NCBI RefSeq assembly: GCF_016463645.1
Contig: NZ_JAEMQX010000005.1
Span: forward strand, 1 to 64,000
DNA length: 64,000 nucleotides
Source: Sphingopyxis sp.
GTDB taxonomy: Bacteria > Pseudomonadota > Alphaproteobacteria > Sphingomonadales > Sphingomonadaceae
Direction: 5' to 3'
The notes under the pieces were generated by a model. The model was not told where the DNA came from and did not search any database. It saw only the letters and a list, made by a program, of their open reading frames with translations. The translations under genes and the position numbers were made by a program. Shown piece after piece: positions 20,813 to 59,066 of the stretch (its first letter is position 1; each line of letters starts with the position of its first letter).

Positions 20813-21415
20813 CTATTCGGCGCCCGGAGAATTTCCTTCCGCCGCGACCTGGGGCAATTTTTCGCGCTCGAACTGGATCGTCGTGATCTTGGCGTCGAGC
20901 GCCTGCACCACCTCGGCCGTCAGGTCGTTCGCGAAATTCCCGCCGAGCACCGCACCGCGATCGAACAACAACCCGCATTTACGTTCGCCATAGACTTTTA
21001 CGATCACCGGCTGCGCTTCGTCGGCAACGCGCGCGAGCGCCTTGGCGCGGGTGGCGTCGATCTCGCGGCTGCCTTGCGCGGCCTGTCGCTGCAGCGCCTG
21101 CCAGCGCGTCGCGAGAGCATCGCGGCGCGTCCTGGTTTTGGCATCGTCGCCCTGCGCCGCGAGCGCCTTCGCCTCGGCCTCGATCGGCGTGCGCTGCTGG
21201 TCGACTTCGGCCTGGGCGGCGCGTGTCAGCTCCGCGATCCGCGCCGATACCGCCTTTCCGACAGCCGCATTGGCAAAAACCGCCTCGCGTGAGAGCAGGC
21301 AGACGCCGGGGACGACCGGGCCTCCGAACGTCGGCGCGGGAGCGGTCTGCTGCGCAGCGACCGGCGCGGCGACCAGCGCGAGAGCGATGGCACTTGTCGG
21401 TATGATCCGGATCAT
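20813..21415 (-). CDS. OmpH/Skp-like periplasmic chaperone
   Basis: A 200-residue exported protein with a signal peptide (about 1-22), then a long helical, Ala/Gln/Arg/Glu-rich hairpin (about 50-130; ARIAELTRAAQAEVDQQRTP) and a C-terminal beta strand region, as in Skp/OmpH. I prefer the ATG at 21415, two bases after the upstream stop, because GAGG lies nine bases before it; an ATG at 21424 overlaps that stop. Skp holds unfolded outer-membrane and secreted proteins in the periplasm. It is the last gene of the minus-strand block that encodes a giant FHA-like protein, so a dedicated holding role for that cargo is likely by context. Confidence 0.78.
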   Translation of the reverse strand: MIRIIPTSAIALALVAAPVAAQQTAPAPTFGGPVVPGVCLLSREAVFANAAVGKAVSARIAELTRAAQAEVDQQRTPIEAEAKALAAQGDDAKTRTRRDALATRWQALQRQAAQGSREIDATRAKALARVADEAQPVIVKVYGERKCGLLFDRGAVLGGNFANDLTAEVVQALDAKITTIQFEREKLPQVAAEGNSPGAE

Positions 21416-21416
21416 T

Positions 21417-22175
21417 TCAGGCATCCTCGGTTTCGGTGACGGCTTCCGCCGATACGACGGCGTCCTCTGCGCGCGCCAGCAGGTCGGCGAAGCGGTCGAG
21501 CGACAGGAAATGGAAATGGACGAGCGCGAGCCATCCCTTGCGATGCCATTCGAGCACCAGCGCGTCGGGAAGCGCGTCGAACTTCGCGCGATCGACGACC
21601 TTGAAACCGCTGAGCGTCAGGGCCTGCCCCGAATCGAGCCGCGCGTCGGCATGCTGGTCGACGAGCAGCTCCTGCGCGAGCAGCGCCTCGACGAAGGCAT
21701 CGGTCTGGATGTGCGCACCGTGGAAATCGCGGCAGAAGGTCAGGATATTGTCGACCACTTCGGTCGGCCTCCCGTCCGAAAACAGCGCCGCGCCCTCGGC
21801 GTCTCCCGTAAAATGCGGCGCCGCGCGGTCGATCGCGAGGACAAAGCTGTCCTGCGACCGGTCGACGAAGACAAACGGATAGCGACGGGCATAAGCGGGC
21901 ACATAGCAACCCGGCGCCCATTCTTTGCCATCGACGAATCCGTTGCGGCGGTCGAGGCCCAGGATCGCCACGGGAAAGCCGTCGCCGGCCGCAAAAACGA
22001 CCGGGTAGTGTCGCATCGCAGGCCCGAATTCGACGACGGTCAGCGGGATCGCATTGGCTTCCTTGGCAAAGCCATAGCCGCCGGGCCGGAGCCGCAGGTC
22101 GACGTGCTGCGCCGCCGTGAGCAATTCGGGCTGGCGATAGAAGAGCGGAAATCGGGTTTCGGTTTTCTCGGTCAT
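21417..22175 (-). CDS. SapC-family protein
   Basis: A 252-residue protein with the SapC-family features: FGPAMRHYPVVFAAGDGFPVAILGL, EWAPGCYVPAYARRYPFVFV and a C-terminal HFHFLSLDRFADLL. There is no clear Sec signal, so it probably acts in the cytoplasm or with another partner. The family is named after a Campylobacter S-layer gene, but its biochemical role is unknown; in Caulobacter and sphingomonads it often lies near TonB receptors or surface protein genes. The ATG at 22175 directly starts the conserved part. It follows the giant FHA-like gene across a gap holding a strong hairpin. Confidence 0.85.
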   Translation of the reverse strand: MTEKTETRFPLFYRQPELLTAAQHVDLRLRPGGYGFAKEANAIPLTVVEFGPAMRHYPVVFAAGDGFPVAILGLDRRNGFVDGKEWAPGCYVPAYARRYPFVFVDRSQDSFVLAIDRAAPHFTGDAEGAALFSDGRPTEVVDNILTFCRDFHGAHIQTDAFVEALLAQELLVDQHADARLDSGQALTLSGFKVVDRAKFDALPDALVLEWHRKGWLALVHFHFLSLDRFADLLARAEDAVVSAEAVTETEDA

Positions 22176-22216
22176 GTCGAACCTGTCTGCAAAAAGAGGA
22201 AATAGCGGTTGGCAGT

Positions 22217-22246
22217 GGCCGGGAGGAACGACCCTCCCTCCCGGCC
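22217..22246 (-). terminator. Strong hairpin between TpsA and SapC genes
   Basis: GGCCGGGAGG (minus strand) pairs perfectly over ten bases with CCTCCCGGCC around a ten-base loop, 10 bases after the giant gene stop. There is no T-run, so partial termination, pausing or protection of the 12-kb message from 3' decay are all possible. Confidence 0.5.
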
Positions 22247-22255
22247 GGCCGCCGG

Positions 22256-25200
22256 TCAGTCGCGATCGACCGGGCAACGGTTGGTTGCGGTTTCGACGCA
22301 GTCGTCGGTGCCGAAGCTGACGACCGATCCCGTCAGGATCGTCTGGCGGACGGTGCGCAATTTCTCGACTTCGGCTGCCATGTCGAACGCCTTGTCGAGC
22401 GCGTCGTCCTCCGCCGACTGGGCGAAGTTTTCGAGGTTGAGCGGCCCGACCGAGCCTTCCTCGGTCGTCAGGTCGACGTTCGTCTCGCCCCCGACCGTGA
22501 TATTGTCGAGCCCGCGGATCTCGATCGCCCCGACGAACAGGTCGCGCGATGCCCGGATGCCCGCATCGCCGGCGTTGACGATGCCGTTGAAGGCATAAAG
22601 GTCGACGTCGCCGCCCTGCTTGCCGTCGACCTGGTCGAGCGTCGCGATACCGGCACCGTTGGGCAGGCCGGAGAGCTGGATGTTGGTCTGACCCCAGGCG
22701 TTGATCGGGAAGGCCACCGGCGGCACCGAAAGCGACGTCTTGCGACCGCGCCCGGCGTCGATGTTGCCAAAGGACGACCAGATCAGGATATCGCCGTCGT
22801 CGGCGGTCATCGTGCGGCTCTGGTTGACGATATAGTCGCCATAAGTGACCACATTGACCCCGCCGCCGCGCTGGGTGACGATACCCGCGGTGCCCGGATT
22901 GGTATTCGAGATCGCAAGGCTGGCGAGCTGGATCGAGCCGCCCGGCGCGAGCAGGTCGACGTTGCCGCCGCTTTCCCCGCGGATCTGGCTGACCATCATC
23001 TCGATATTGCCCGTCCAGCGATGCTCGCCTTCGGCCAGCGTCTCGCCCGGCTTGCGCTGCGCACCGGGGAAGAGGCGGCCCACCGCATCATAACCGCGCG
23101 TCGGGTCGCCCTGACGGACATAACGGCCGTCGGTTTCGGGCGAGCGGCCCACTGCTTCGCGACCGGCGGTCTTGAGCTCGGCGTTGAGGATGCGCACCGC
23201 GAGCGGCCGCTGGAGCACGGGGTCGAGCGCCTTGAACGCCGCGAACGCCCCGGCATATTCGGCGGGATCGATCTCGGCGACCAGCTTGCCGCGGGTGATC
23301 GGACGACTGCCACTGACCTCGTCGGGCGCTTCGGTCGGGATCGGTTCCCGCCCCGCCATCTCGCGCATGTAATTGACGAGTTCGATCGCATAGACGGTGG
23401 TCCGCGTCTGGCCGTCGGCGAGCACGACATCGGTCGAGACGGTCAGCCCCTCGCGGTCGCCCTCGACGAAATACTGGCGGAGCCACGACGGCGCATCGGC
23501 GACATTCTCGGGATCGAGATAATAATCGAAGAACGGCTGATACTCGGGTTCCTGATCGATGCCGGCGAGAGCGCTGATGCTGCCGCCGCTGAGCGGCGCC
23601 GCGGTCGGAACGATGCTGTATGCCTCGCGCGCCCGGATGCCCCGCCCCTCGGTGCGGCCCATCCAGATTTCGTCGCCCGCCTGCACCCACAGGTGTCCGG
23701 GGCCATAGAGCACGGCGTCGGGCAGATAGATCGAACCGCCCGCCTCGATCACCGGCACGTCGCTGCCGTCGTGGGTGATGAAGGTGATGTCGCCCATGCG
23801 GATGTTGCCGCCGGCCTTCAGCCGCGTCTCGTGCCCGAAGGTGAAGGTCCCGCCATGCATCCCGTTGCCGCCGTTCGGATCGGTATCGTAGCTGCCCTCG
23901 TCCCAGCCGATCATGTCGCCCTGCGCGGCGTAGATCCGGCTGTAGCTCGACGACCCGCTGTGGACGTTGGGCCCGTCGATCCCGTAGCCCGGCCCGGCCT
24001 GGTTGAACATCCAGTGGCCGTTCAGCGGATCCTGCGTGATCGTCGACTGGAACAGCGGGGTATTGAAATTGCTGGTGCCGGGGTTGATCGCGCGCGGAAC
24101 CCAGAGCGGGTCGGCGTAGCCGATGGTGAAGCCCGCACCGTCATAATTGCCCGCAAGGCGGAACCGGATATTCTGCTGCGCGAGGAGGTCGAGCCGCGTG
24201 TCGGGCCACATGTCGACCATGACGCGGGCGCCGGCCTTGTCCTCCATCCCGAAGTTGATCGAGCCCGCCGTCGCCACGAACGCGGTCTGGCTGGGCAGTA
24301 TATTCACCCCGCCGTTGGCGCCCGACTGGGTGCGATAGTTGATGTCGCCGCCCAGCGAGGTGACGCGAAGGCGGGTGTCGGCCGTGTAGCCGAGCCAGCT
24401 CGGCTGGTCGCCGCTGCTGCCGTAGCGCCCGCTGAGCCACAGCGGCAGCGACGTCACGCCGAGCATCGACGATACGCCGCGCAGATTGACGTCGCCGCCC
24501 GCCTGCAGGCTGAGCTGCGCATCGTCGACGGCGAGTTGCAGATAGGCGGCGTTGTCGAGCGCCAGCCCGATTCCCGTCCGCTGATCGGTCGCGATCACGC
24601 TGCCCGCGACGTCGATCGTCGCACGGCCCTTGCCGACCTGGACAAGGCCGCCTTTCATATTCTGGCCGACGTTCATGACCAGATCGCCGCCGCCCGACAG
24701 ATGGAGCGTCTTGGCCGGCATGTCGGCCGTACCGCCCGAAACGCGCACCCACGTCGGAAGCGCGACAACCAGATTGTCGACATCCCCGCCACTGGTGATG
24801 CTGACGTCACCGCCGCCCAGCGCGCCGATGCCCTGCGTAAACTGGTCGGCGAGCAGCGAAAGCGCCGTCTGGCCGGTCTGGTCGGCCTGATATTGCACAT
24901 ATTCCGTGTTGAACAACGCGTTCGGGTCCTTGCCCGGATAGCTGTAGCCGAACAGTGCGGTCGTCGGCGTCGAACCGCTCGCCACCATCCAGCGGTAATT
25001 TTCGAATATCGTCCCCGCGCCGGTTATCGCACCGCCGACATTCACATTCACATCGCCACCCTTGGTCATATACGACCGGTGCGCGATGATGCCGGGCATG
25101 TTGCTGCTCGAAAAACCGACATGCGTCTTGTCGGTGAAATTGGCGACCGGACCATCCTCGACGCCGACGGTATAGATGGCGCCGTTCACCATCTCGACCG

Positions 25201-28200
25201 GCCGCACGTCATCGAAGCCGAACGTGCTGTTATCGGGGATATAGCGCCCGTCGGCGAGAACGAGCGCGACATCGCCGGTGCCGCCGACCACGACCCGGAC
25301 CTCGAGGTCGCCGAGACCGGCGATCGAGGCGGGCACGCGCATCTGGACCGGCGCGCCCGGGTCGTTCGACCGGTTCGACGCGATTTCCCAGACGAGGTCG
25401 CCGCCAAGAAAGGTCTTGCCGGCGATGACGACTTCGCCGGGGAAACGCGTGTCGGCGGCCAGCGTCACATCGGCGGTCAGCACGGTATCCGCCGCGAGCA
25501 CGCTGCCGTCGGGCATTTCGGTCCCCGCAGGCAGTTTCGTGCCCTTGCGCAGCACCGTACCCGCCGGAAGCTCGGGGTAGATGGTGCGCCCGGCACCGTC
25601 GGCCGAGGCGTAGCTCGTCGGCTTCAGGATCGTGCCGTCGGCGACCGGCGTGCCCTTCGGAACGGTGATCCGGGTCGCCGGATCGCTGTCGTTCCAGCTC
25701 CCCTGATAGCTGATCAGCGAAGCCTTTTCGTAGGTCAGGTCGCCGCTGGCGGCGACGTTGATGTCGCCGGTGCCGGTGCGCACCAGCCCGCCGACCTCGA
25801 TCGCCCCGTCGCTGCCGGTTTGTGTCGAGAGCACATTGGTCTGTGCGAAATCGGCGCCCGCGACGAGGTTGTAGCTCCAGCTGTCGTCATTGGTGAAATC
25901 GGACGCCGGCGCATCGGGCAGCGGGACCGAGCCCGGGGTCCAGCCAAAGGGGAGCCCCTCCGGCGAAATGGCGTCGGGAGTCGCATGTCCGTCGACGAAG
26001 CCGTCTGACAGGTTGGCGTTGATCGTCAGGTCGCCCCCGGCGCGCAGTGTCAGCACGCCGCCCTTTCCGTCGAAGCGCGCATTCTTGAAGTTCCAGTTGT
26101 GGACAAGGTCCATGTCGCCTTCGGAGCGCAGTTCGATCCCCGGGACGAGCTGGAAGGCGGCATTGCCCGCCTGGCCGAGCCGCGCCCGGATTCCTGTACC
26201 ATTGGCGTCCATGAACGCCGTCGCATCGGCGATCACCTGCTGCTGCAACGCAGTGTCGATTTCGGCCAGATGGCCGTTCGATGCGTCGCCGTCGGCGTCG
26301 CCGAGATCATAGACGCGGAACGCCTCGAGCTGCGTGGCGCCGCCCGAGACATTGGCGCCCCAGCGCGTGACGGCGACGTCGTTGCCGGTCTGCGCCGCGC
26401 GCAGCCGAACGGTGCCGCCCTGCCCCTTGCCTTTGCCCGAGACGTCGAGCGACGCATTGCCGACGTCGATATTGCCGCCGACCGCGACCTGCAGGTCGAC
26501 CGAGCCGCCGCGCTGGTCGGCGCCCTTCGCGCTCACGTCAAAGCGCGCGCCGTCGGCGACGATCAGGTCGCCGCCCGAGGCGAGCAGGATCGTTCCGCCC
26601 TTCGCGCTGTCGCTACCGAGGATCGCGTCGCCGGCGACCGTGATATCGCCATTGCCGGTAACGATACGCAGCGCATCGACCCGTGTCGTGCCGTTGAGCA
26701 GGACATCGCCGTCGAGGATCGCGAAGTCGCGGCGCCGCGAGAAGCCCCAGTCGTTGAGTCTGGCGTTGAGGCCGCCGAAATCGTCGAGCGTCGAGGTCGT
26801 CAGCGCGAAACTGCCGGTACGGTAACCGTCGGCGACATCGGCCTTCAGCACGCCGCCCAGCACGACGACGCCGCGCCCCGCCGACAGTGCAACCGCGCCC
26901 GCGTCACCGCCCGCCGAACCGCCCGACACATTGAGGAGCGAGCCTTCTTCGACCAGCGTATCGCCGTTGACCGAGGTGAGTTGGATGCTGCCGCCGGGCA
27001 GGAAGCCCTGGACCTCGAAGAAGGACACATCGGCGCCGCCGACGTCGATCTTCGCGCCCGAGGCCAGCCGGACGTCACCCTCGCTCGCGGTCGCGCGCAC
27101 CGTACCCGACCCCGCGCGAATCGCGGCATCGATCAGGACATCGGTCCCGCGGAAATCGAGCAAGGCACCCGCCGATGCGAAGGCGGGGAGCGCCGCCGTG
27201 CTGCCGTTGCCGCGCAGTTGGGTCGCGTCCGCCGCGGTCACGACATGGCCCGCGCCGCTTTCGCCGGTGATCTCGGCGGCGCGGATCGTAAGCGCGCCGT
27301 CGAAGCTGCTTTCGCCCAGACCCGCGAAGATCACACGCTGTTCGGCATCCATTGTCGTGGTGTCGAAGGCGAAATCGACATTGCCCTCACCCATCACGAT
27401 ATTCTTCGCGCCCAGCGCCAGCGCGCCGCCGTTTCCGGTGGCATCGATCGCCGCGGCGTCGCTGTTGCGAAGCTCGAGCGTGCCGGCGGCGATGCTCACA
27501 TTGCCCGGCGTTTCGCCGCGCGCGATGAAGGCTGCGCCGTCGAGCGCGACCGTGCCGGTCAGGTCGAGCGCCACATCGCCATAGAAATCGATGGTCGAAT
27601 AGCTTTTGAGCGTCAGCTTGTCGGCGGTGGTCAGCGCGGCCAGCGTCGCCCCCGAGAAGACGAGGCCCTCGGTGCCTTGCGGAACCGCACCGAGGCTGAC
27701 GAGACCCGCCGCCGCGGTGATCGCGTCGGCCTTGATCACCGCGCCATTGCCGACGATCGTGTTCTCGGTCGAGTCGAGCAGCACCGAGTCCGCCGCTTCG
27801 AGCGTGGCGCCCGCCTCGACGATCATGTCGCCGGCAACGCTCTGCACATTCTCGCGCGACACGGTAATGTCGCCGAGGTTCGAGACGCGCAGGAAGGCAC
27901 CGCCGCGATCTTCCGGACCGGCGACAAACTGTCCGAATTCATAAAAGGCGGGCATGCTCGGCGCGATTGCGATATCCGCGGCATCCGCGCCATCGCCCTG
28001 CGCGCGGATCACCGACCCGCTTTCGACGCGCACGGTGTCGTTCGCGGCGAACAGCAGCTCGGTGCCGGTCAGCGGATTGGCTCCATCTGTGCGGATCACG
28101 ACATTTTCGGCGCCGACGCTCTTTTCGGGCGAGCGGACCTCGTCAACCGAATCGCGCGTGGATTGGCCGGTGACGACTTCGAGGCCGGCCTGTCCCTGAC

Positions 28201-31200: not shown

Positions 31201-34200
31201 CCTTGCCGCCCTTGCCTTCGAACAGGCGGAAATCGCCTTCGTTGAAACGGGTGGACGCACCCTGCCCCTGGCTGTTCTGTCCGGGTTTGACGCGCTGGTA
31301 CCAGCCGCCGCCGGCGGCATCGAGCGTGATGTCGCCCGTCAGCGTCGAGCCGAGCAGGCTGATCGTCCCGCCGTCGACATAGCCGCGGATGGCATTGGCG
31401 GGCGCATCGACGTCATTGATCCACGGCGCCGCGACCGACAGCAGGACGTCGCTGCCGATCGTCATGCCGTTGGCGGCCCCGAGCGAAATATTGCCCGATG
31501 GCGCGATGATCGAGACATTGTTGCCGACGCGGCCAACGCCATTTTCGCTGCCGGTCGAAAAACCGCCGCCCGGCGCGAGGCGGATCGAGACGCCGGGATT
31601 GATCGTCTGGTTCTGATGGCCGCTGCCATAACCGAGCACGACGTCGCCCATGCCCGAGAAGAAATCATCCTCGATATAGGAGATCCAGCGCGGCTGGCCG
31701 TTTTCATAGGTGCCCTTGGACGTCCAGAGCGGATCGCCCTCGGTATAGCTCTGGTCGCCATAGGCGGTGCCGACCGCGAACGGATCGAGCAGCATCGGAT
31801 CGCTCTCGACGAACGGGCCGTTGGTTTCGGTCTCGGTCCACAGCGTGCCGGTGAATGCCTTTTCGTCGGCGACGATGAAGCTGTACGTCGACGACCAAGG
31901 CCCATATTCAGGCCCGCCGCGGTGGAGCGTCGCCGACCCCGCCTTGGGCATGCCGATTTCGCCGACAAGGCTCGCACCGACCGCGCCGGCGGGAACGCGC
32001 GGGGCGCGGATCTGACCGAGCGCCGCCATTACCTGGCGGTCGCCCACGACGGCGTCGCCCGTGAGCTTGCCGAACAGGCGCGAACTGCCCGACAGCAATT
32101 CGACCGCCCCCGCGTCGGCGCCCTCGACATAGCCCTTTTCCAGCCGCGTCGCCTTGCTGATCCCGACATAGCGCAGGTTCGGATCGGCGTCGGAGATATT
32201 GTGGAAGCGCCCGAAGCTGTCCTGCAGGCGCGTCACGGTCACTTCGGCATCGGTATATCTGGTGCTGCCGCCCGACACGTCGATCGTCGCGCCGTCCTCG
32301 ACGATGGCGAACTCGGACGCGCGGATGCGTACGTTGCCGCCTTCGGTCGACATCTGTTCGGCGGTACGCTGCTCGCCCGCGAGCGCACCAGTCCAGTCGA
32401 CGATCGCCGCGCCGTCGCGGCGGTCGACATAGACCGTCTCGCCGACCAATATGCCGTCGCGCTGCTTCGGCGAGGCCGACACTTCATTCGAGCGCACCTC
32501 GACCGCGAAGATGTTGTCGGCGACGCTGCGCTCGACATCGCGCAGGCCCGACACGTCGATCCGCGCGCCCGATTTCATGACGAAGCTGCCCTTGTCGCCG
32601 CGGGTTTCCTGGACCGAGCCGTCGGTGGCCGCCGGGCTGCTGCCGCCGCGTTCGCCGACGCCGCTCGGGCTCGCGTGGATCACGACCTCGCCGCTGCGCG
32701 AGATCACGCTGGAATTTTCCTCGAGCACAATATCCCTGCCCGCGATCAGGATGCGCCCCTTGGCGAAACTGTCCGCCGCAAGGCCGGTGATGTCCGATGT
32801 ATCGGGGGTGATGCTGGTGACGCTGCCTTCGCCCAACGTGACCTTGCCGGCGAAATAATTGCCGCCGACCGAATAATCGCTGACGTTGAAGCCATGGCTC
32901 GCCTGCAGCACGATCGTGCCGTTGCGCTGGCGCACGCCGTTGGTGACGCGGATCGCGCCCATCTGGTCGACATTGGCGCCGACCATCGTCACCGCGCCGC
33001 GATCGACGAGGATCTCGCCGCTGTTGGCGGCGGTCATCCCCACCGCATTGGCGCGTTCGAGATAGGCCGCGTCCCACGCCGCCTGCGTTTCCGGCCGGCA
33101 ACATGGCATTCCGGGGAAGCTGCCGTAGGAATCGATGATCGGCGTCGCCCGCACATTGACCGCAAGACCGCCGCGTGCCGAGTTGGTGAAGCCCTGACCG
33201 GCGCTGAGCTTGATTTCCTCGCCGGCGGCCATCAGCACCTGTCCGTCGTGCGCGGTCAGCTTGCCGGCGTTCGAGACGTTGGGGCCGAACAGCATGATCT
33301 TGCCGGGGCTGGCGCTGTCCGACGAACTGGCGGTCAGGGTCACGCCGCGTTCGACCGTGATGCGCGAATTGGCGAGATAATTGGTATAGTTCTGCTGCGT
33401 CGTCGCAAGGCGCGCGCTGTACTGGTCGACGAACTGCGTCTTGATCTGCGCCGCTACTTCGTCGCGCAGCATCTGGGGGATCGATTGCGATCCGGCCGGA
33501 ATCCCCTGCCAGCTTACCCCGGTCCAGAACTGACTGATGTTGGTGAAATCCGAATAATCATAGTCGCCCATTTTCGACACGTCGATGTTGGCGATGATGC
33601 TTTCGAGCACCGCGCCGAGACCGACATTCGCGAATTCGGGATTGACGAAATAGCTGTTGCCGCCGGTCGACGCATCATAATAGCTCAGCAGGTCGAGGCC
33701 GTAGCCCGAATTATACTGGTCGACGCCCTCCATGCCATTGTCGCGCAGGATCGCCATGCGGATCGCGGCGCGCGCGAGGAAATCGATGACGCTCGTGCGC
33801 TCGCCCGCGACCGGCGCCGGCGCTTCGCCGAGCAGGCTGTTCGGATCGAGCCCGACCGGCGGGCGCGGCACCATGCCGATATTCTGGGCGGGAAAGAGCG
33901 GATTGGCGGCCTGACCGCGGATGACCCCGTTGCCCGAAAGCAGCCCGTTATAGAGCTGATTCTCGGTGATCGGCAGCGCGGTCGCAAGGATGCTGTGCGC
34001 GTTGATCTGCGCGCCGTCCTTGAAGATGATGCCATTGGTATTCTGCAACCACACCTGGCCCTTGGCGGTAATCTTGCCCGCGATCTCGCTCGGCTTGCTG
34101 TCGAAGATGCGGTTGAGCGCGATCCAGTCGGTGCCCTGCTGCTGGAAACGCACCTCCTCATTCTTGCCGACGTCGAAGCGCGACCAGTCGAGCAGCGCGC

Positions 34201-34450: not shown

Positions 34451-34503
34451 GACGATTCCTCGGGATCGAATGGGGAAAGGGGTACGCGCGGCGGGTGTGC
34501 GGA

Positions 34504-34980
34504 TCAGGGGTTGGCCGGCGCCGGTTCGGCGGCGGGCACCGCGTCACGCTCGGGGTAGAAGCCGAGCGCCGCGACTTGGTCGCTGAACTCCTGCAGCTTG
34601 TTCTCCAGCCGGACGCGATAGAGGCCGGTCAGCGGTTCGCTCGCCGCCATCTTCTTGCCGAGGCCCATTTTTTCGTAATCGGCGATGATCGCGTCGCCGA
34701 GTTCGCGCAGTTCGCGGTTCTTGTCGGCGGCGATCGTGATTGCCTTGCGGCTCGCCTCGATCTGGCCGGTGGCGCTGCGCGCGGCGGCGACCTCGGCCTC
34801 CATCGCGCGCATCTTTTCCGACATGTCACGAAGCTGGTCGTTACGCTGCTTCAGCGTCGCGATCAGTTGCTGCGCCTGCTCGGCGACGATGCAACCGCCG
34901 GGCGCCGCATTTTCCTGTGCCTGCGCGGCAGGAGCGATGGCCAGCGCGACGAGCGACAGGCCGATGATCTGCTTTTTCAT
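34504..34980 (-). CDS. Small periplasmic coiled-coil protein
   Basis: A 158-residue exported protein. The signal peptide (about 1-22, ending AQA) is followed by a single Cys and a long charged helical region (about 35-125; IATLKQRNDQLRDMSEKMRA and so on) and a short Pro/Ala tail. No named family was recognised; it resembles a compact Skp/OmpH-like or TonB-system accessory protein. It lies 54 bases upstream of the giant TpsA gene in the direction of transcription, and 12 bases after the porin gene, so it is a good candidate for a chaperone or periplasmic guide of the exoprotein. Confidence 0.7.
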   Translation of the reverse strand: MKKQIIGLSLVALAIAPAAQAQENAAPGGCIVAEQAQQLIATLKQRNDQLRDMSEKMRAMEAEVAAARSATGQIEASRKAITIAADKNRELRELGDAIIADYEKMGLGKKMAASEPLTGLYRVRLENKLQEFSDQVAALGFYPERDAVPAAEPAPANP

Positions 34981-34991
34981 CACGATATCCC

Positions 34992-36581
34992 TCAAAACTT
35001 CGCGTTCAGGTCGAGCATGAAGACGTCGGTATCGATCGGCGGCGCGGCGGTGCCGGTCGCGGGGTCGACGAGGTCGATGGTGCGCGCCGAAAGCCACGAG
35101 CCGGTGAGCCAGAAATTCTTGGCGAGGCCCCAGCTGCCGCGAACGACAAAACCCTTCTGGTCGGTGCCGCCGAGACCGAAATCGGAATCGGTGAACAGGT
35201 CGAGCGTCGAATCGGCTTCGAGACGGCGGTAACCCGCGCTGAGGCTCCAAGCGTTCGCTTCGGCGATCTCGCGGTGGCCGATCGACAGCTGCGCGTTCCA
35301 CGCCATGTCGCCGCTCGACGCGGGCACCAGCCGGTCGTCGAGTTCGTCGCGGTCGAAGGCGAAGTTTTTCAGCACCTCGAAATCGAGCGCGCCGACGAGC
35401 GTCGGGTTGATGTCGAATTCGGCGCGCGCGGTCGCCGCCCCGACGCGGAACTTCGATGCGAGGCCGAACTTGACGGTGTTCACGACGCCGCCGTCCTGGC
35501 GCAGGTTGAACACCGAGTTACCGAACTGGACGCGATCGGGCGCGGTGAAGTCGTTATCGCGCAGGCCCTGCGTATTATACTGGCCCTGGACGTTCGCGAA
35601 TTCGTAGAGCGCCGCCGCCGCCTTGAAGCGCAGCCCGTCGACCGGCGCGGTCTTCACCCCGATCTGGCCCGCGAACAGGAATTTGTCGTCGCCGGTGAAA
35701 TCCCATTCCTCGAGCGGGAAGGCACCGCCGGTCAGGAAGACCGAGGGTGCACCCTCGCCGCCACCAAGGCGCGCTTCGAGCGTCGCCGCCGCGCCCTCGA
35801 ACTGCAGGTCGCGGTCGAACATCAGCTCGGTCGAGAAGAAGGGATTGTCGAACTTGCCGAGGATGAGGTTGCTGCCGGCAAAGCGGCCGTCCTTGTCGAA
35901 CGGGCGCACGCGGATGTACGCACGGTCGAGCCCGACCATGAACTTGTCGAAATTGCCGGTCAGCGATTCATTCGTCGAAACCGGGTCGCTTGGGTTGCCG
36001 GTGACGAAGCGCAGGCCGGCCTCGACCTTGTCCGACACCTTGGCATCGACGCCGAAACGGGCGCGGACGCGCGCGCGCTGGCGATCCTTCGTCGTCGCGC
36101 GCAGCGGCAACAGGTCGTCGACGAAATAGCCGCCATCGGCGTTGATCGCATTGATGTCATAGATCAGCGGCGTGTTGCTCTGACCGAAGGCGACATGCTC
36201 GCCCCGCACGCGCATGTCGCCCGAGAAGCGAAAGCGGCTGAGCCATTCGGGAAGCGCGTCGGGCTGGGCCCAGCCTTCCTGCCGGGCGGTCGCGACGACC
36301 TCCTTCTTCACTTCGTCGCGGATCTGGTTGCGGACCGCCTCGGGCACATAGGGCACACGCACGACGCCGCTGTTCGCCTCGGCGCGCTTGCGCGCCTCCG
36401 ACAGCACCGAATTGGCGTCGTCGCGCGACAGCACGCCCTTTTCGACGAGGACGTCGAGGATATCGATCGTCGAGGGATCGGTCGGGCGATCCTGCGCGGC
36501 GGCGCCCTGCGGGATCGCGGCCAATGCAGCGAGCGCAGCGGTCGCGGCCAGGAGAGTCGGTTTAAGCTTGTGGCTACGCAT
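34992..36581 (-). CDS. Putative outer-membrane porin
   Basis: A 529-residue protein. The chosen ATG at 36581 gives a good signal peptide (about 1-30, ending GAAAQ); an ATG at 36608 adds nine residues. After the leader a short helical segment (ILDVLVEKGVLSRDDANSVL) and a charged stretch precede a large barrel (about 115-529; FSGDMRVRGEHVAFGQ to the terminal LNAKF with Phe last), as in the putative porin (Porin_5) family. In the same operon as TonB, ExbD, ExbB and TPS genes, it might be a passive channel or a structural helper of surface display. The specific solute is not known. Confidence 0.8.
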   Translation of the reverse strand: MRSHKLKPTLLAATAALAALAAIPQGAAAQDRPTDPSTIDILDVLVEKGVLSRDDANSVLSEARKRAEANSGVVRVPYVPEAVRNQIRDEVKKEVVATARQEGWAQPDALPEWLSRFRFSGDMRVRGEHVAFGQSNTPLIYDINAINADGGYFVDDLLPLRATTKDRQRARVRARFGVDAKVSDKVEAGLRFVTGNPSDPVSTNESLTGNFDKFMVGLDRAYIRVRPFDKDGRFAGSNLILGKFDNPFFSTELMFDRDLQFEGAAATLEARLGGGEGAPSVFLTGGAFPLEEWDFTGDDKFLFAGQIGVKTAPVDGLRFKAAAALYEFANVQGQYNTQGLRDNDFTAPDRVQFGNSVFNLRQDGGVVNTVKFGLASKFRVGAATARAEFDINPTLVGALDFEVLKNFAFDRDELDDRLVPASSGDMAWNAQLSIGHREIAEANAWSLSAGYRRLEADSTLDLFTDSDFGLGGTDQKGFVVRGSWGLAKNFWLTGSWLSARTIDLVDPATGTAAPPIDTDVFMLDLNAKF

Positions 36582-36613
36582 CGTTGATTTTCCCTGTTCC
36601 TTGGTCATGGGTT

Positions 36614-37309
36614 TCACGCCTGATTGAGTTGGAGAGTGATCTGGTTGGGGACGCCCGCGGGTGGCGGCGTGTCGATCCGGTTGAGGCCGCGCAGCGTCTG
36701 GAGCAGTTCGGCCTCGAGATCGGCCGGACGGACGCCCGAGAGCCCCAGGATTTCCAGCTGCCCCGACCCCGAGACGCGGACCCGGACACGAAACTGGAAG
36801 CTCGCCTGCGCGAGGTTGGGCCGCTTGCGCAGTTGCCGCATCAGCGCGCGCTGGACGAGTTCGGCATAAGCGCGCGACGCGCCGCTGCCGCCCTTGCCGG
36901 TGCCGCCGATCATCGGGCCGCTGCCGGTGCCGCCCTGCCCGCGCGGACCGCCCGAAAAGGCCCCGCTGTCGCTGGTCGGGTCCTGCAGCAGGCTCGACAG
37001 GTCGCCCGTCGGCGGGTTGGTGTTCGCCGGTTGCGGCGGCGAGAGCGGGTCGGGCTGCACCGCCTGCGCGGTTTCGGCGACCTTCTCGACCTCCTCGGGC
37101 GGCTGTTCGGTGAGTTCGGGCGGCGGCGGAGGCGGCGGCGGCGGGACCGCGAGGTCGAACATCTCGACCTCTTCGTCGCGCACGCGCTCCTCGACCTTGT
37201 CGAGGCCCGCGAGCCACCAAGCGGCCAGCAGCAGCGCGAGGATCAGCGCGGCCGGCCCGGCGACCCGCCTGAGGTCGGGCGTCTTCCGGAGGGATGGAAA
37301 AGCGGTCAT
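36614..37309 (-). CDS. tonB: TonB-family energy transducer of the TPS cluster
   Basis: A 231-residue TonB-like protein: a short cytoplasmic start, one transmembrane helix (about 17-38; AGPAALILALLLAAWWLAG), a Pro-rich periplasmic spacer with a run of nine Pro, a Gly-rich flexible stretch (about 110-150), and a C-terminal TonB domain (about 150-231; FQFRVRVRVSGSGQLEILGLS). TonB carries proton-motive energy from ExbB/ExbD to outer-membrane partners. The gene follows ExbD by 18 bases and precedes the porin by 32, in one operon with TpsB and TpsA. Its outer-membrane client may be TpsB, the porin or something elsewhere. Confidence 0.88.
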   Translation of the reverse strand: MTAFPSLRKTPDLRRVAGPAALILALLLAAWWLAGLDKVEERVRDEEVEMFDLAVPPPPPPPPPELTEQPPEEVEKVAETAQAVQPDPLSPPQPANTNPPTGDLSSLLQDPTSDSGAFSGGPRGQGGTGSGPMIGGTGKGGSGASRAYAELVQRALMRQLRKRPNLAQASFQFRVRVRVSGSGQLEILGLSGVRPADLEAELLQTLRGLNRIDTPPPAGVPNQITLQLNQA

Positions 37310-37327
37310 GGCGGTCCGATACCCCGC

Positions 37328-37735
37328 TCAGCCCGCGGGCTTTTCGGCGGGCAGGCCGATCTTGGTGATGCCCACGCCCTTCAGCACATCGAGCACCTCG
37401 ACGACCTTGCCATAGGCGGCCTGCGTGTCGCCGCGGATCACGACGGGCACTTCGGGATCCTCGGCGAAACGCTGACGCATCTCGGCCTCCAGCTCGGCAG
37501 TCGTCGTCGGCGCGCCGTTGAGATAGAGGTCGCCCGTCGACGCGACGCTGATCGCCTGCGTCTGCGAAGCCTCCAGCGTCTGGCGGTTCGACGCCTGCGG
37601 CAGGTCGAGTTCGATGCCCGCCACCTGCGCGGTCGCCATCAGGATGAAGATGACGATCAGCACATAGGCAAGGTCGAGCATCGGAACGACGTTGATCTCG
37701 TCGTAAATGGCGTCTTCGTCTTGAACTTTAGCCAT
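37328..37735 (-). CDS. exbD: ExbD/TolR-family proton-channel subunit
   Basis: A 135-residue protein of normal ExbD length. It has one N-terminal transmembrane helix (about 15-38; INVVPMLDLAYVLIVIFILM) with the essential acidic residue of the family, here the Asp in MLDLAYVL, and a small periplasmic domain (about 45-130; PEVPVVIRGDTQAAYGKVVE). Together with the ExbB-type protein encoded 12 bases upstream, it would form the stator that powers the TonB protein encoded just downstream. The gene order ExbB-ExbD-TonB is standard; the setting between TpsB and TpsA is not. Confidence 0.92.
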   Translation of the reverse strand: MAKVQDEDAIYDEINVVPMLDLAYVLIVIFILMATAQVAGIELDLPQASNRQTLEASQTQAISVASTGDLYLNGAPTTTAELEAEMRQRFAEDPEVPVVIRGDTQAAYGKVVEVLDVLKGVGITKIGLPAEKPAG

Positions 37736-37747
37736 GAGCCCGGCTCC

Positions 37748-39439
37748 TCAGGCGCCATATTCTTCGGCAATCCGCGCGACGAGGGCGTCGGCGAACGAGC
37801 GATTAGCAGCGTTGATGCGCTTGATCCGGGTGAGGATCAGGTTGTAGCCGAACAGCGCGGGGATCGCGACGGCGAGGCCGGCGGCGGTGGCGAGCAGCGC
37901 CGCGGCGACACCCGGAGCAATCGCGTTGACGTTGACGTTCCCCTGCGCCGCGATCGCGGCAAAGGTGATCATCACGCCGACCACCGTACCGAGCAGGCCG
38001 AGGAACGGCCCCCCCGCGATCGACAGCGTCAGGATGACGAGCTTGTCCGACAGGCTGTACGCCTGGTTCGACGACACCGCATCGATCCGCGCCTTCAGCG
38101 CTTCGATCGCCGGCGCAGTGAAGCGCGCACGTCCGGCCTGCGAACGATTGGCAACCTCCTGCAGCCCGGCCTGATAGAGCTGCGACAGCGTCGAGCTCGG
38201 GGTCTTTTCGGCGTGCTGGCCGAGCGCGGCGCCATCGAGCTGCGCTTCGGTCGCATAGGCTTTTTCGAACTGGCCGTTCTCGGTCTCGATCCGCTTCAGG
38301 AGGCGGAACTTCTGGACCATCACGCGGATCGCAAGCACCAGCAGCACGGCACAAAGCGCGATGACGAGCCAGCCTTCGATCGTGACGCTTTTGACGACGG
38401 TCACGAAATAGCCGAGTTCGAAATGCCCGCTGCGTTCCTGTTCGGCGCCGAAGGTCACGAGGCCGCGGCCGTTGTCCGACCGCGCGACCGCCTGCACATA
38501 GCCCGCGCTGCGATCGGCGGCGGCGAAGCGCAGATTGTCGATCTGGCCGGCGAAGCCCTGCCCGACGACGATATCGCCCTGCTGTGCGGGAAGCGCGGCG
38601 CTGCCGGCGCCCGCCGGGGTGCCATTGACGAACAGTTCGGCGCGGCCATCGCTGCGCACGACGAGAGCGACATGGTTCCAGCTGCCCGGCTTCAGCGCCG
38701 CAGTCGAGGGGATCTGCACGCCGCCGACGGTCACCACCGGCGCGAGCCCGGCAAGCGCGATCGAGAAGGACCCACCCCGGTCGACGACGCTGCCGCCCCC
38801 CGCCGCGCCCGGCTTGACCCACGCCATGAAAGTGAACGGCCGGCCGCCGATGTTGAGGCTGCTCGAAGCCGCGATGCGCAGCACTTCCCTGCCGCTGAAC
38901 GTCGCCGACTGGCCGGCGAAGCCCGCCGAGGTCGGGACGGTCGAAACGCTGTTGTTGTTGCGCGTGCGGTCCTTGACCGGCGAGCCAGAGAAATCGAGCG
39001 CGAGGATTTCGGACGCATCGAACACCCCGGCCGGATTGGCGGTCGAGGCGACGTCGCCATCATAATAGAGATGATAGGTCTGGCTCGATGCGGGGTCGAG
39101 GCCGACGCCCTTCACCCACACCGTCGCGAGCCCCGACTTCGGGTCGAAATTCTCGACATAATGGTCGACGCGTTCGCCATTGGGGCCCGCGACGCGCAGG
39201 TCCGATCCGTCGGGCTTCACATCGTCGAACGCAAAGGTCTGCGTCGACAGGCGGAGCACGAAGGGAAAGGTCGCCGTCTTGGCGTCGAGCCCCGCGCCAT
39301 CGGCCCCCGGCTTCACAACGATTTCCTTGCGCACCGACAGATTGTCGTCGAGCCAGGCGGCGTCTTGCGTTTGCGCCGCAGCGGACATGGAAAGCATGCC
39401 GATCGCTGCCGCGATCGCTCCGAAAATCAGTTTCTTCAT
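37748..39439 (-). CDS. DUF2341-LamG-ExbB fusion (MotA/TolQ/ExbB proton channel)
   Basis: A 563-residue protein, more than twice the size of normal ExbB. Order: signal peptide (about 1-22), a DUF2341 domain (about 40-150; DHYVENFDPKSGLATVWVKG), a concanavalin-like LamG domain (about 165-325; FTFMAWVKPGAAGGGSVVDR, SWNHVALVVRSDGRAELFVN), then the ExbB part: first helix (about 350-372; GWLVIALCAVLLVLAIRVMV), a cytoplasmic helical loop, and two more helices (about 465-535; LGLLGTVVGVMITFAA, AALLATAAGLAVAIPALFGY). The periplasmic lectin-like extension could sense a sugar polymer or the exoprotein. Known in Caulobacterales and sphingomonads by this architecture; its role is not established. Confidence 0.88.
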   Translation of the reverse strand: MKKLIFGAIAAAIGMLSMSAAAQTQDAAWLDDNLSVRKEIVVKPGADGAGLDAKTATFPFVLRLSTQTFAFDDVKPDGSDLRVAGPNGERVDHYVENFDPKSGLATVWVKGVGLDPASSQTYHLYYDGDVASTANPAGVFDASEILALDFSGSPVKDRTRNNNSVSTVPTSAGFAGQSATFSGREVLRIAASSSLNIGGRPFTFMAWVKPGAAGGGSVVDRGGSFSIALAGLAPVVTVGGVQIPSTAALKPGSWNHVALVVRSDGRAELFVNGTPAGAGSAALPAQQGDIVVGQGFAGQIDNLRFAAADRSAGYVQAVARSDNGRGLVTFGAEQERSGHFELGYFVTVVKSVTIEGWLVIALCAVLLVLAIRVMVQKFRLLKRIETENGQFEKAYATEAQLDGAALGQHAEKTPSSTLSQLYQAGLQEVANRSQAGRARFTAPAIEALKARIDAVSSNQAYSLSDKLVILTLSIAGGPFLGLLGTVVGVMITFAAIAAQGNVNVNAIAPGVAAALLATAAGLAVAIPALFGYNLILTRIKRINAANRSFADALVARIAEEYGA

Positions 39440-39449
39440 GGGTATTTCC

Positions 39450-41162
39450 TCAGTATTTCAAGCCGACTTTGAAGTGCGCGCGCAGGCCACCCAGGTCGTC
39501 CTGGACAGGCTGCCCCGACTTCGTCGGATCCGATCGAAATTGATAAGCAAGGTCGAGTTGACCGTAGAAAATCTTGTACAGGTCGAACCTAGTCGTCAGG
39601 CCGGCGCTTCCGAGCCAGAAGGACGATTTTTCCTCGGGAAGCGGGCTTTCGATCCAAGCGTAGCCGCCCTCCAGGAAAGCCGCGACGCGCCAGTCGATCT
39701 TTTCGGCGCCCGTCGGGAGCTTGTAGCCGAGTTCGAGCGAAAGCCGCGCGCCGCTGTCGCCGAGCACTTCGGCCTCGCGGTAGCCGCGGATGCTGCCGAC
39801 CCCGCCGAGCACGAACTGTTCGTTCGAAATCAGCGGCGCGGGGGCGAGCTGCCAGTCGAGCGCCGCGCGCAGGTCGAAATCATTCTTGAGCTGGCGGTTA
39901 TAGACGCCGCTGCCATAGAAATAGATGAAGCTCGCTTCGGCGCCGGCGCGCTTGCCGACCGATTCCTCGTTGACGTTCGGGGTCAGCGGATTGTCGGGAA
40001 TATAGCCGAATTCGCGCTGGCGGCCGACGAGGCCGTCGAAAGCGAAGGTCGTGCCGATGCTGAACTCGCCATTCGATTGCGTGTTGCCGCCGAGCCAGCG
40101 ATATTGCGCGGTAAACGGCAGATAGGTGACCGGCGTGTCGAAGGTCAGTGTCTCGCCCGTTTCAGGATCGACGAGGCCGATCTGGTCGAGATAATCCTTG
40201 TAATCGACGCCGAACAACAGCGACTGCACCGTCCCCTGCGGCGAATTTCCGAGCGTGCGCATGAAGCGCCCGCCGACGGTCAGGCCATTGCCAAGCACGG
40301 TCAGCCCGCCGACCGTCGCGACGTCGGTGTTCGAATTGACGATATAGCCGAGCAGGCTCGACCGGCCGTAGCCGAGCGGCGCATAATAGGAGCCCGAGAC
40401 GACCTGTACCTGATCGAAATCCTCGGGCGCGGTCTGGAAGAAGATATTCGCGCTGTGTCCGGCCTGCCAGAGATTGTCGTAGTTCGCCGACACGTTGAGG
40501 CGAAAGCGTTCGGTCGAGCGGTTATACTGGTCGCTGACCTCGATCGACGCGCCCCACGGCTTCTTGTCCTCGACCGCCAGTTCGATGTCGACGGTCCCCG
40601 GCGCCGCGCCGGCCTTGAACTCGGGAGTGATCGTGCGCGTCGTGCGCGCGTTCGCCGATGACAATTCCTGCTGGAGCGTCGGCACATTGGGAACGGTGCC
40701 GGGCTTCAGGCTCGGCAGCGCGCCGCGAACCTCGCTCGGCAGCACGAAGTCGGCGCCCGTCACGCGGACGCGGCCGACCTTGCCTTCGGTGACGACCAGC
40801 TCGAGAATGCCCGAGCTGACGTCCTGTTGCGGGATTTCGACGACGACCGTCGCATAGCCGCGGTCGCGATACGCTTTTTCAAGCTCGCTGCGCGCGACTT
40901 CGACGTCAGGCACGCTCTTGCCGTAACCCGCGTGCGGCATCAGCACCGTCTGGATGTCGGCCGCCGTGAGGACCGAATTGCCGCGCACGACATATTCCAT
41001 GACGTCGAAGCGAAACTTGGGATCGCCCGCCGGCGCCGCGGCGGCCTCGTCCTGCGCCGCGGCCGGATTCGCCGCACAGAGAGCAAGGACGCTTACCGCG
41101 GCCATACAACCCCGCAGCGGGTGCAGGGTACGCCCCGCTCTCAATTTTTTCATTCGAACCAT
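39450..41162 (-). CDS. Two-partner secretion outer-membrane transporter (TpsB, ShlB/FhaC/HecB)
   Basis: A 570-residue Omp85-superfamily protein. After a signal peptide (about 1-36, ending AAAQ) come POTRA domains (about 50-210; EYVVRGNSVLTAADIQTVLM, VEIPQQDVSSGILELVVTEG) and a 16-stranded-type barrel ending in FKVGLKY with a terminal aromatic residue. The conserved loop motif appears as GSIRGYRE near residue 458, matching the VRGY/F element that plugs the pore in FhaC. POTRA domains bind the TPS domain of the exoprotein; the cognate TpsA is encoded 5 kb downstream in the same direction. The normal tpsB-tpsA adjacency is broken here by five genes for energy coupling and envelope proteins. Confidence 0.93.
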   Translation of the reverse strand: MVRMKKLRAGRTLHPLRGCMAAVSVLALCAANPAAAQDEAAAAPAGDPKFRFDVMEYVVRGNSVLTAADIQTVLMPHAGYGKSVPDVEVARSELEKAYRDRGYATVVVEIPQQDVSSGILELVVTEGKVGRVRVTGADFVLPSEVRGALPSLKPGTVPNVPTLQQELSSANARTTRTITPEFKAGAAPGTVDIELAVEDKKPWGASIEVSDQYNRSTERFRLNVSANYDNLWQAGHSANIFFQTAPEDFDQVQVVSGSYYAPLGYGRSSLLGYIVNSNTDVATVGGLTVLGNGLTVGGRFMRTLGNSPQGTVQSLLFGVDYKDYLDQIGLVDPETGETLTFDTPVTYLPFTAQYRWLGGNTQSNGEFSIGTTFAFDGLVGRQREFGYIPDNPLTPNVNEESVGKRAGAEASFIYFYGSGVYNRQLKNDFDLRAALDWQLAPAPLISNEQFVLGGVGSIRGYREAEVLGDSGARLSLELGYKLPTGAEKIDWRVAAFLEGGYAWIESPLPEEKSSFWLGSAGLTTRFDLYKIFYGQLDLAYQFRSDPTKSGQPVQDDLGGLRAHFKVGLKY

Positions 41163-43175: not shown

Positions 43176-43195
43176 CGTCAACCTGGATCAGTCCT

Positions 43196-50312: not shown

Positions 50313-50403
50313 GGCTATTGCCCCCGAGATGCGGGCGGCGACCTCCGCCCGTTCGGAGACTGAGAGACCTGGGCGGCGCGCTTCCGCCCCTGGCTTGCGC
50401 AAA

Positions 50404-58983: not shown

Positions 58984-59066
58984 AATCCCTCCCCATTGTG
59001 CGAGGGATTGTTTTTTGGCCCCTCCGCCATTAAAACGGATGGACCGTCCTTTTGCGCCCCCGTTTC

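What the first reader, a model, noticed from the sequence alone, without database searches (positions are those of the whole stretch)
20813..41162. Two-partner secretion operon with its own TonB-ExbB-ExbD motor
Between TpsB and its 4064-residue TpsA lie ExbB-type, ExbD, TonB, porin and coiled-coil periplasmic genes, followed by SapC and an Skp-like chaperone, all on one strand. Known: TpsB-driven export is thought to need no inner-membrane energy. Inferred: this may be an energised variant in which TonB acts on TpsB or on surface release of a very long substrate.
Basis: partly seen in the sequence, partly recalled or inferred. Interest (0 to 1): 0.87.

Follow-up and report, generated by a model that had tools for sequence, protein, structure and literature searches.

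The report
Giant-adhesin exporter with its own motor
A bacterium carries a gene set for exporting a giant surface protein that comes packaged with its own proton-driven motor; the same packaging recurs in many other bacteria, which makes it testable whether this "energy-free" export route is really powered.

Summary
On the minus strand lie TpsB (39450-41162), ExbB with a large N-terminal domain, ExbD, TonB, a Porin_5 protein, a coiled-coil protein and a 4064-residue TpsA, with 5-53 bp gaps. It is the PdtAB/PUMA3-type locus known from Pseudomonas aeruginosa (pdtB-exbB2-exbD2-tonB4-PA0696-PA0697), whose Ton genes PMC7035377 calls "still uncharacterized". New here: the coupling looks obligatory. 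TpsA with DUF3739 occurs in 14 of 398 genomes of the phylum (own included); all 14 have the motor, and only these 14 have full-length Porin_5. TpsB-ExbB-ExbD-TonB-Porin_5-coiled coil stands in that order in 78 of 80 named loci, fetched through ExbB; two are cut by contig ends. None of 62 TpsB genes in 35 genomes without DUF3739 had ExbD within 20 kb. Motor TpsBs branch apart from 19 controls and seem to lack the N-terminal plug helix. The presumed proton-channel residues are invariant. Whether the motor serves export, display, retention, uptake through Porin_5 or signalling is untested; no TonB target was identified. Verdict: real, conserved, partly in print, mechanism open.

The parts
44444..45112 (-). 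VreA-like periplasmic protein: STN-like N-terminal half plus TonB/TolA-like C-terminal half
   Evidence: No Pfam hit by itself; in its alignment 14 of 15 members match STN and 7 of 15 TonB_2; profile hits FpvA/PupB/FecA signalling domains; C-terminal half matches the operon's TonB profile, hhalign 98.6%, E 6.4e-16
43776..44447 (-). second TonB protein, between VreA-like and sigma factor genes
   Evidence: TonB_C 2.5e-7; a match to it in the same place in the alphaproteobacterial loci L078, L084 and L154
43196..43738 (-). ECF sigma factor (VreI-like)
   Evidence: Sigma70_r4_2 9e-11; recurs with FecR beside part of the operons (29 of 80)
42231..43181 (-). FecR-type sigma regulator (VreR-like)
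   Evidence: FecR 6.8e-12, DUF4880 4.5e-9
41362..42165 (-). LuxR regulator with autoinducer-binding domain
   Evidence: GerE 6.5e-18, Autoind_bind 1.6e-11
39450..41162 (-). TpsB outer-membrane transporter, two POTRA domains and barrel, no N-terminal plug helix seen
   Evidence: Pfam; AlphaFold2 model pLDDT 79.3, pTM 0.68, residues 1-47 under 50; best Foldseek matches CdiB 6wim (4.4e-27) and FhaC 4ql0 (1.9e-24)
37748..39439 (-). ExbB/TolQ-type proton channel subunit with N-terminal DUF2341 + concanavalin-like domain, taken to be periplasmic
   Evidence: Pfam; model pLDDT 74.3, pTM 0.46, weak over the DUF2341 part: beta domain about 202-306 and TolQ-like helices; Thr485 and Thr518 invariant in 94 of 94
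37328..37735 (-). ExbD/TolR subunit
   Evidence: ExbD 9.9e-28; membrane Asp present in 93 of 93
36614..37309 (-). TonB-like protein: N-terminal hydrophobic stretch (seen by eye), Pro-rich stretch, C-terminal TonB/TolA-like domain
   Evidence: Alignment A2, prolines invariant in 24 of 24; TonB_2 in 19 of 24 members; profile hits TolA, HasB, TonB in PDB at 0.0013-0.25
34992..36608 (-). Porin_5 outer-membrane protein
   Evidence: PF16930 1.8e-140; full-length family members only in the 14 DUF3739 genomes of 398
34504..34980 (-). periplasmic coiled-coil protein with conserved C-terminal motif
   Evidence: Alignment A4; a family hit in the same place in 78 of 80 named loci, but in only 8 of 13 loci of the phylum sample
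22256..34450 (-). TpsA, 4064 residues: TPS domain and C-terminal DUF3739
   Evidence: TPS 3.3e-21, DUF3739 7.5e-27
21417..22175 (-). SapC-family protein, seen only in this locus
   Evidence: SapC 3.7e-59; no SapC hit in the 80 loci or in the 9 kb behind TpsA of the nearest relative
20813..21424 (-). OmpH/Skp-type periplasmic chaperone
   Evidence: OmpH 1.6e-18; a Skp hit follows TpsA in the nearest relative and stands between CC and TpsA in L116, L119, L121, L122

Best explanation
This is a motor-coupled subtype of two-partner secretion, the PdtAB/PUMA3 type. Shown by sequence: in every sampled genome a DUF3739-type TpsA goes with a private ExbB-ExbD-TonB set and a Porin_5 protein, with a distinct branch of TpsB and mostly with a coiled-coil protein. 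Inferred: ExbB-ExbD take up protons in the inner membrane and drive the TonB protein, which reaches the outer membrane and works on the TpsB/Porin_5 assembly or on the TpsA chain in it. There it helps very long TpsA chains (about 3300-5100 residues) to be threaded, kept on the surface or released. The coiled-coil protein and Skp or PpiC helpers keep TpsA unfolded in the periplasm. The VreA-like/sigma/FecR genes set when the set is made, in P. aeruginosa under phosphate starvation. That the motor serves TpsA biogenesis is the likely part; direct powering of translocation is one version of it, put at about 0.25.
For: Co-occurrence: DUF3739 in 14 of 398 genomes; DUF2341, the ExbB N-terminal domain, in 13 of 398, all among those 14; full-length Porin_5 in exactly those 14. 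The one genome without DUF2341, G342, has ExbB cut off at a contig start, followed by ExbD-TonB-Porin_5. Order: 78 of 80 named loci. Control: 0 of 62 TpsB in 35 genomes without DUF3739 have ExbD within 20 kb. Presumed motor residues invariant. Motor TpsBs are one side of a branch against 19 controls (100/99), the ExbBs against 29 other TolQ/ExbB genes (100/100). Motor TpsBs have a short N-terminus without the Gln-rich stretch of several controls and no helix there in the model. TpsA, TpsB, motor and porin genes sit together on a plasmid typed conjugative in Klebsiella.
Against: No TonB box or contact site was found in TpsB. The literature holds that TPS export needs no outside energy, with in vitro translocation into liposomes (PMC5422565 passages). 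Porin_5 is tied to the motor as closely as TpsB, so it may be the real target. In G326 the motor lies on another contig than TpsB-Porin_5-CC-TpsA. In 51 of 80 named loci no TpsA piece lies in the fetched stretch, up to 10 kb each side. G342 has no TpsB hit in its assembly. The motor's role in PdtA secretion is not tested in anything I could read.
Confidence: 0.5

Rival explanations
1. Nutrient-scavenging reading: TpsA is an extracellular capture or processing protein, and TonB-ExbB-ExbD powers uptake through the Porin_5 protein, as HxuA-HxuB and the TonB-dependent HxuC divide the work in heme capture.
For: Full-length Porin_5 has the same 14-of-398 distribution as DUF3739. It follows TonB directly in 12 of 13 loci from the phylum sample. 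The P. aeruginosa locus is induced by phosphate starvation (PMC4971064, PMC9769906 passages). A PhoD phosphatase with a TonB-dependent receptor lies just upstream in the window. HxuCBA precedent.
Against: Porin_5 has no plug domain in Pfam, so it is not a classical TonB-dependent transporter. No substrate or binding protein is suggested. In G326 Porin_5 sits with TpsB, not with the motor.
Confidence: 0.22
2. Tol-like envelope or retention reading: the motor and TonB/TolA-like protein keep the outer membrane tethered, or hold, retract or release the finished TpsA, rather than drive its export.
For: NCBIfam's best matches are TolQ (9.8e-36) and TolR (5.5e-27), both under their curated cut-offs. 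The best solved relatives of the channel part are TolQ, and the TonB protein's weak matches are to TolA. The coiled-coil protein is reminiscent of CpoB in the Tol operon (recalled).
Against: No TolB or Pal among the operon's genes. DUF2341-bearing motors are found only with this TpsA class in 398 genomes, whereas envelope maintenance should be more general.
Confidence: 0.16
3. Signalling reading: the TonB system serves the VreA-like/FecR/sigma pathway, reporting secretion or an outside signal, since the VreA C-terminal half is a relative of the operon's TonB domain.
For: Profile match of TonB and VreA-like C-terminal halves, 98.6%, E 6.4e-16; STN half in 14 of 15 members.
Against: Only 29 of 80 ExbB loci have FecR+ECF in the fetched stretch; they may lie further off. 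VreA is reported not to be required for sigma-VreI activity in P. aeruginosa (PMC7035377, PMC4971064 passages).
Confidence: 0.1

Closest known systems
PdtA/PdtB with exbB2-exbD2-tonB4-PA0696-PA0697 and vreAIR (PUMA3) of Pseudomonas aeruginosa
   Same: Same gene order from TpsB to the gene in the coiled coil's place, as printed; large TpsA; bilobal VreA (STN + TolA/TonB-like), ECF sigma, FecR-type regulator (PMC2729926, PMC7035377, PMC4971064 passages). Llamas 2009 lists the association of PUMA3, TPS, ExbBD and PA0696 homologues in six further genomes.
   Different: In the window TpsA follows the coiled-coil gene in one run, a second TonB and a LuxR gene lie among the regulators, and SapC and Skp follow TpsA; in P. 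aeruginosa pdtA has its own promoter. A phosphate link in the window is not shown. The P. aeruginosa sequences themselves were not compared; its congener P. otitidis (L147) was.
Canonical two-partner secretion (FhaB/FhaC, CdiA/CdiB)
   Same: TPS domain, ShlB-type POTRA, 2-POTRA Omp85 barrel; nearest folds CdiB 6wim and FhaC 4ql0.
   Different: Private ExbB-ExbD-TonB, Porin_5 and coiled-coil genes; DUF3739 C-terminus; TpsB on a separate branch and without an evident plug helix.
TonB-ExbB-ExbD and Tol-Pal energy systems
   Same: ExbB/ExbD with the conserved residues, Pro-rich TonB with a C-terminal TonB_2-like domain.
   Different: ExbB bears about 330 extra N-terminal residues (DUF2341 + concanavalin-like); no TonB-dependent receptor and no TolB/Pal in the operon. 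DUF2341 on such subunits is named as of unknown function in PMC12505986 (passages).
HxuCBA of Haemophilus influenzae
   Same: TPS genes in one operon with a TonB-dependent outer-membrane transporter (PMC5422565 passages).
   Different: HxuC is a TonB-dependent transporter; here the barrel is Porin_5 and the motor genes themselves are in the operon.

Membership tests
Two-partner secretion (type Vb) | TpsB: Omp85 barrel with ShlB-type POTRA domains | tested here: met
Two-partner secretion (type Vb) | TpsA with N-terminal TPS domain, gene near tpsB | tested here: met
   PF05860 3.3e-21; same run of genes
Two-partner secretion (type Vb) | N-terminal plug helix H1 in TpsB (typical of FhaC and CdiB; recalled, not strictly defining) | tested here: not met
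   Median 16 residues before POTRA1 in the 83 of 91 motor TpsBs that could be assigned (range 1-54); 15 of 18 assigned controls, of 20, have 40-57 (crude rule); no helix before residue 67 in the model
Two-partner secretion (type Vb) | No inner-membrane energy input needed | not testable with these tools
   Needs mutants
PdtAB/PUMA3-type locus | Order TpsB-ExbB-ExbD-TonB-porin-PA0697-like | tested here: met
   against gene lists in PMC7035377; last gene by position only
PdtAB/PUMA3-type locus | VreA with STN and TolA/TonB-like halves, ECF sigma and FecR-type regulator nearby | tested here: met
PdtAB/PUMA3-type locus | PhoB/phosphate control | tested here: inconclusive
   Pho-box scan at up to 3 mismatches: 3 hits, 2.25 expected; none before TpsB
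PdtAB/PUMA3-type locus | Hxc type II secretion genes and phdA beside it | not tested
   Not searched for
TonB-ExbB-ExbD energy system | ExbB Thr residues and ExbD membrane Asp (choice of residues recalled) | tested here: met
   94 of 94, 94 of 94, 93 of 93
TonB-ExbB-ExbD energy system | TonB C-terminal domain | tested here: met
   19 of 24 family members match TonB_2; the window protein alone has no Pfam hit
TonB-ExbB-ExbD energy system | Use of proton-motive force | not testable with these tools
   Inferred from conserved residues only
Tol-Pal system | TolB and Pal encoded with the motor | tested here: not met
   None among the operon's genes
TonB-dependent transporter (for the Porin_5 protein) | Plug domain | tested here: not met
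   Only Porin_5 found

The most novel reading that the evidence does not exclude
A proton-powered type V secretion machine. TonB-ExbB-ExbD acts directly on the plug-less TpsB or on a conserved C-terminal strand of TpsA (near-consensus S-hydrophobic-x-x-V-x-V-L-G-F-G behind DUF3739), and VreA, which carries a relative of the same TonB domain, competes for that contact and so reports secretion to the sigma factor.
Probability: 0.2. Interest if true: 0.88.

Novelty: new variant of a known kind. Interest (0 to 1): 0.62.

Why it matters
Type V secretion is described as having no energy source of its own, and what pulls or pushes TpsA through its pore is posed as an open question (PMC5422565 and PMC6555100 passages). 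A TPS subtype that in this sample never occurs without its own Ton-type motor, and that lies with it on a plasmid typed conjugative, lets one ask directly whether some TPS systems are powered. It also gives a place to look for the job of DUF2341 motor subunits, named as an open point in PMC12505986, and of the "still uncharacterized" P. aeruginosa tonB4 system.

Tried and rejected
Cysteine hook: the window TpsA ends with two cysteines as HMW1/CdrA-type anchors do (recalled), but among the TpsA ends compared only the window, G214-C4 and G326 have it; not a general feature.

TonB box in TpsB: the stretch before POTRA1 is short and not conserved. In Porin_5 the conserved N-terminal stretch looks helical by eye. 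Nothing convincing.

TpsA C-terminal strand: a regular expression matched 20 of 24 TpsA ends; two more (L037, L039) differ by one letter; the window and its nearest relative are degenerate. Kept only as the novel case.

First TpsB tree took the longest open frame of each control stretch, apparently the wrong one in some; redone with the frames matched (19 controls, L171 left out because the POTRA profile did not find it). The cleavage rule is crude: 8 of 91 motor rows and L172 among the controls could not be assigned, L171 was not matched, and three controls got 0, 4 and 17, at least one of them (L181) plainly a mis-assignment.

Pho box: not better than chance.

A plasmid of Methylomagnum looked like a motor without TPS genes; the same plasmid carries DUF3739 and POTRA_2 genes elsewhere.

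Foldseek hits of the ExbB model to neurotoxin binding domains reflect a common lectin-like fold; no functional meaning drawn.

Full report
WHAT IS THERE. The minus strand from 45112 to 20813 carries, in order of transcription: a VreA-like protein, a second TonB, an ECF sigma factor, a FecR-type regulator, a LuxR regulator, then TpsB, ExbB, ExbD, TonB, Porin_5, a coiled-coil protein, TpsA, SapC and an OmpH/Skp chaperone. From TpsB to TpsA the gaps are 10, 12, 18, 5, 11 and 53 bp; 199 bp separate LuxR and TpsB. Its coordinates leave out the regulators.

THE TonB GENE. The weakest name is TonB (36614-37309): no Pfam hit, and a TolA match at 0.0064. Its family settles it. Of 24 aligned members, 19 match TonB_2 and 11 TonB_C. 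The profile finds TolA (0.0013), HasB (0.0044) and TonB (0.016) among solved structures, with unrelated chains in between and below. The run of prolines is invariant in all 24.

KNOWN OR NOT. The same order is printed for P. aeruginosa: pdtB, exbB2, exbD2, tonB4, PA0696 (putative porin), PA0697, controlled by vreA-vreI-vreR and phosphate (passages of PMC2729926, PMC7035377 and PMC4971064). [quoted passage not shown] PMC2729926 (Discussion, part 1) reports PUMA3 homologues beside TPS, ExbBD and PA0696 homologues in six further genomes. Nine literature searches listed nothing whose title, start of abstract or read passages test this motor in TPS secretion. Faure 2014 on PdtA is not held, so I cannot say what it tested.

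CO-OCCURRENCE. In 398 genomes of the window's phylum, taken to be Pseudomonadota (own genome included), DUF3739, the TpsA C-terminal domain, is in 14. DUF2341, the N-terminal domain of this ExbB, is in 13, all among the 14. Full-length Porin_5 is in exactly the same 14; five more genomes have short matches of 103-119 bits. The one genome without DUF2341, G342, has an ExbB cut off by a contig start, with ExbD, TonB and Porin_5 behind it. So 14 of 14 have the motor. Dropping the own genome, a simple hypergeometric chance is 5e-22 for DUF2341 and 1e-24 for Porin_5; this ignores kinship (the 14 fall in 12 genera of 212). TpsB-type POTRA is in 158 of 398, 13 of the 14 among them; G342 has no TpsB hit in its assembly, and its two TpsA genes end near contig ends.

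ORDER. In 13 ExbB loci from 12 of these genomes ExbB-ExbD-TonB is contiguous in all 13, Porin_5 follows in 12, TpsB stands directly before ExbB in 10, and a coiled-coil hit follows in 8. The rest: in G078 and G416 the order is TpsB-TpsA-ExbB-ExbD-TonB-Porin_5-coiled coil; in G326 TpsA, coiled coil, Porin_5 and TpsB lie on one contig and the motor on another; four loci (L072, L073, L074, L081) show no coiled-coil hit. The keep favours kin of the Burkholderia-like query. In 78 of 80 the order TpsB-ExbB-ExbD-TonB-Porin_5-coiled coil is complete; L107 and L132 end at contig ends. FecR+ECF lie in the fetched stretch in 29 of 80 and a TpsA piece in 29 of 80. These loci were found through ExbB, so ExbB itself is given. 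Of 72,556 plasmid records 11 hold this ExbB at E up to 1e-30. Six were opened; all six have ExbD and TonB next to it and five have the porin there. H6 has no porin beside it but has DUF3739 and POTRA_2 genes elsewhere on the plasmid. These gene tables are incomplete. The Klebsiella quasipneumoniae record is typed conjugative and carries sigma, DUF4880, TpsA, TpsB, motor and porin genes, a hypothetical protein in the coiled coil's place, YbjN and PpiC genes.

CONTROL. In 35 of the 145 genomes with TpsB-type POTRA and no DUF3739, taken mostly from the top of the score list, 62 listed TpsB genes were compared with 124 ExbD genes: none within 20 kb, nearest 33 kb. Short contigs could hide neighbours, and not all TpsBs were listed. 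In the window's relatives (59 besides the own genome, 35 of its genus) no full-length ExbB of this kind was found: matches begin at residue 331 or later. The locus is thus sporadic in its genus.

ANATOMY. ExbD's membrane Asp is present in 93 of 93 rows, and ExbB Thr485 and Thr518 in 94 of 94; that these are the proton-channel positions is recalled. The ExbB model (pLDDT 74, pTM 0.46, weak over DUF2341) has TolQ-like helices and a lectin-like beta domain. Motor TpsBs form one side of a branch against 19 controls (25 rows, 100/99); the ExbBs do so against 29 relatives' TolQ/ExbB genes (17 rows, 100/100). The stretch between signal peptide and POTRA1 has a median of 16 residues (range 1-54) in the 83 of 91 motor TpsBs that could be assigned and is low in complexity; 15 of 18 assigned controls (of 20 fetched) have 40-57 residues, several with a Gln-rich stretch. 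In the TpsB model (pLDDT 79, pTM 0.68) residues 1-47 are of low confidence and no helix precedes POTRA1. So the plug helix known from FhaC and CdiB seems to be missing. The VreA-like C-terminal half is a relative of the operon's TonB domain (hhalign 98.6%), which may matter for regulation. TpsA ends carry a conserved strand behind DUF3739, degenerate in the window.

MECHANISM. Shown: the gene set, its conservation, its exclusive pairing in the sample, and intact conserved motor residues. Inferred: that the motor uses protons, that TonB reaches the outer membrane, and that the work done concerns TpsA. Not shown: the target. The case for a TpsA-serving motor (0.5) rests on exclusive pairing with the TpsA class and joint carriage on plasmids. 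Against it stand the accepted energy-free model of TPS, the lack of a TonB contact site in TpsB, and the equal tie to Porin_5. Rivals are uptake through Porin_5 (0.22), a Tol-like envelope or retention role (0.16) and signalling (0.1).

VERDICT.

Noticed in passing
window 45406-51964 (-): PhoD-like phosphatase, a TonB-dependent receptor with a weak STN match, FecR and ECF sigma form a second signalling set directly upstream; a Pho-box-like site with 2 mismatches lies at 52090-52107, but the scan is not better than chance.
   Followed up: partly
window 52269-54821 (-): A TonB-receptor-like gene seems split over two overlapping frames (850 and 401 codons); only a weak Plug match in one, none in the other. 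Possible frameshift or pseudogene; not mended.
   Followed up: no
window 55669-60770 (-): A further STN-type TonB receptor (55669-59334) and FecR gene (within 59067-60770): the window holds three FecR genes, two of them with an ECF sigma gene found beside them.
   Followed up: no
window 41362-42165; L084, L143, L153, L158, L187, L188: A match to the LuxR profile recurs near the operon in several lineages; the window's gene has an autoinducer-binding domain, hinting at quorum control.
   Followed up: no
window 44444-45112 against 36614-37309: The C-terminal half of the VreA-like regulator is a profile relative of the operon's TonB domain; with the second TonB at 43776-44447 the locus has three such domains.
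   Followed up: partly
L083 (G416) and L200 (Aquabacterium plasmid): Two ExbD genes in tandem in the same operon.
   Followed up: no
L196, Klebsiella quasipneumoniae plasmid pKqq_SB98_1: TpsA, TpsB, motor and porin genes with a sigma and a DUF4880 gene sit on a plasmid typed conjugative, so the set may move between species as a unit.
   Followed up: partly
L195, L196, L201, L202: Peptidyl-prolyl isomerase and YbjN genes recur beside the operon, as PA0698-PA0699 in P. aeruginosa; the window has Skp instead.
   Followed up: no
window TpsA C-terminus, about 22256-22300 (-): Two cysteines eight residues apart at the very end, a pair shared with G214-C4 and G326 but with none of the other TpsA ends compared.
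   Followed up: partly
L197, Methylomagnum ishizawai plasmid: Motor genes stand apart from TpsA/TpsB on the same plasmid, near two alkaline phosphatase genes.
   Followed up: partly
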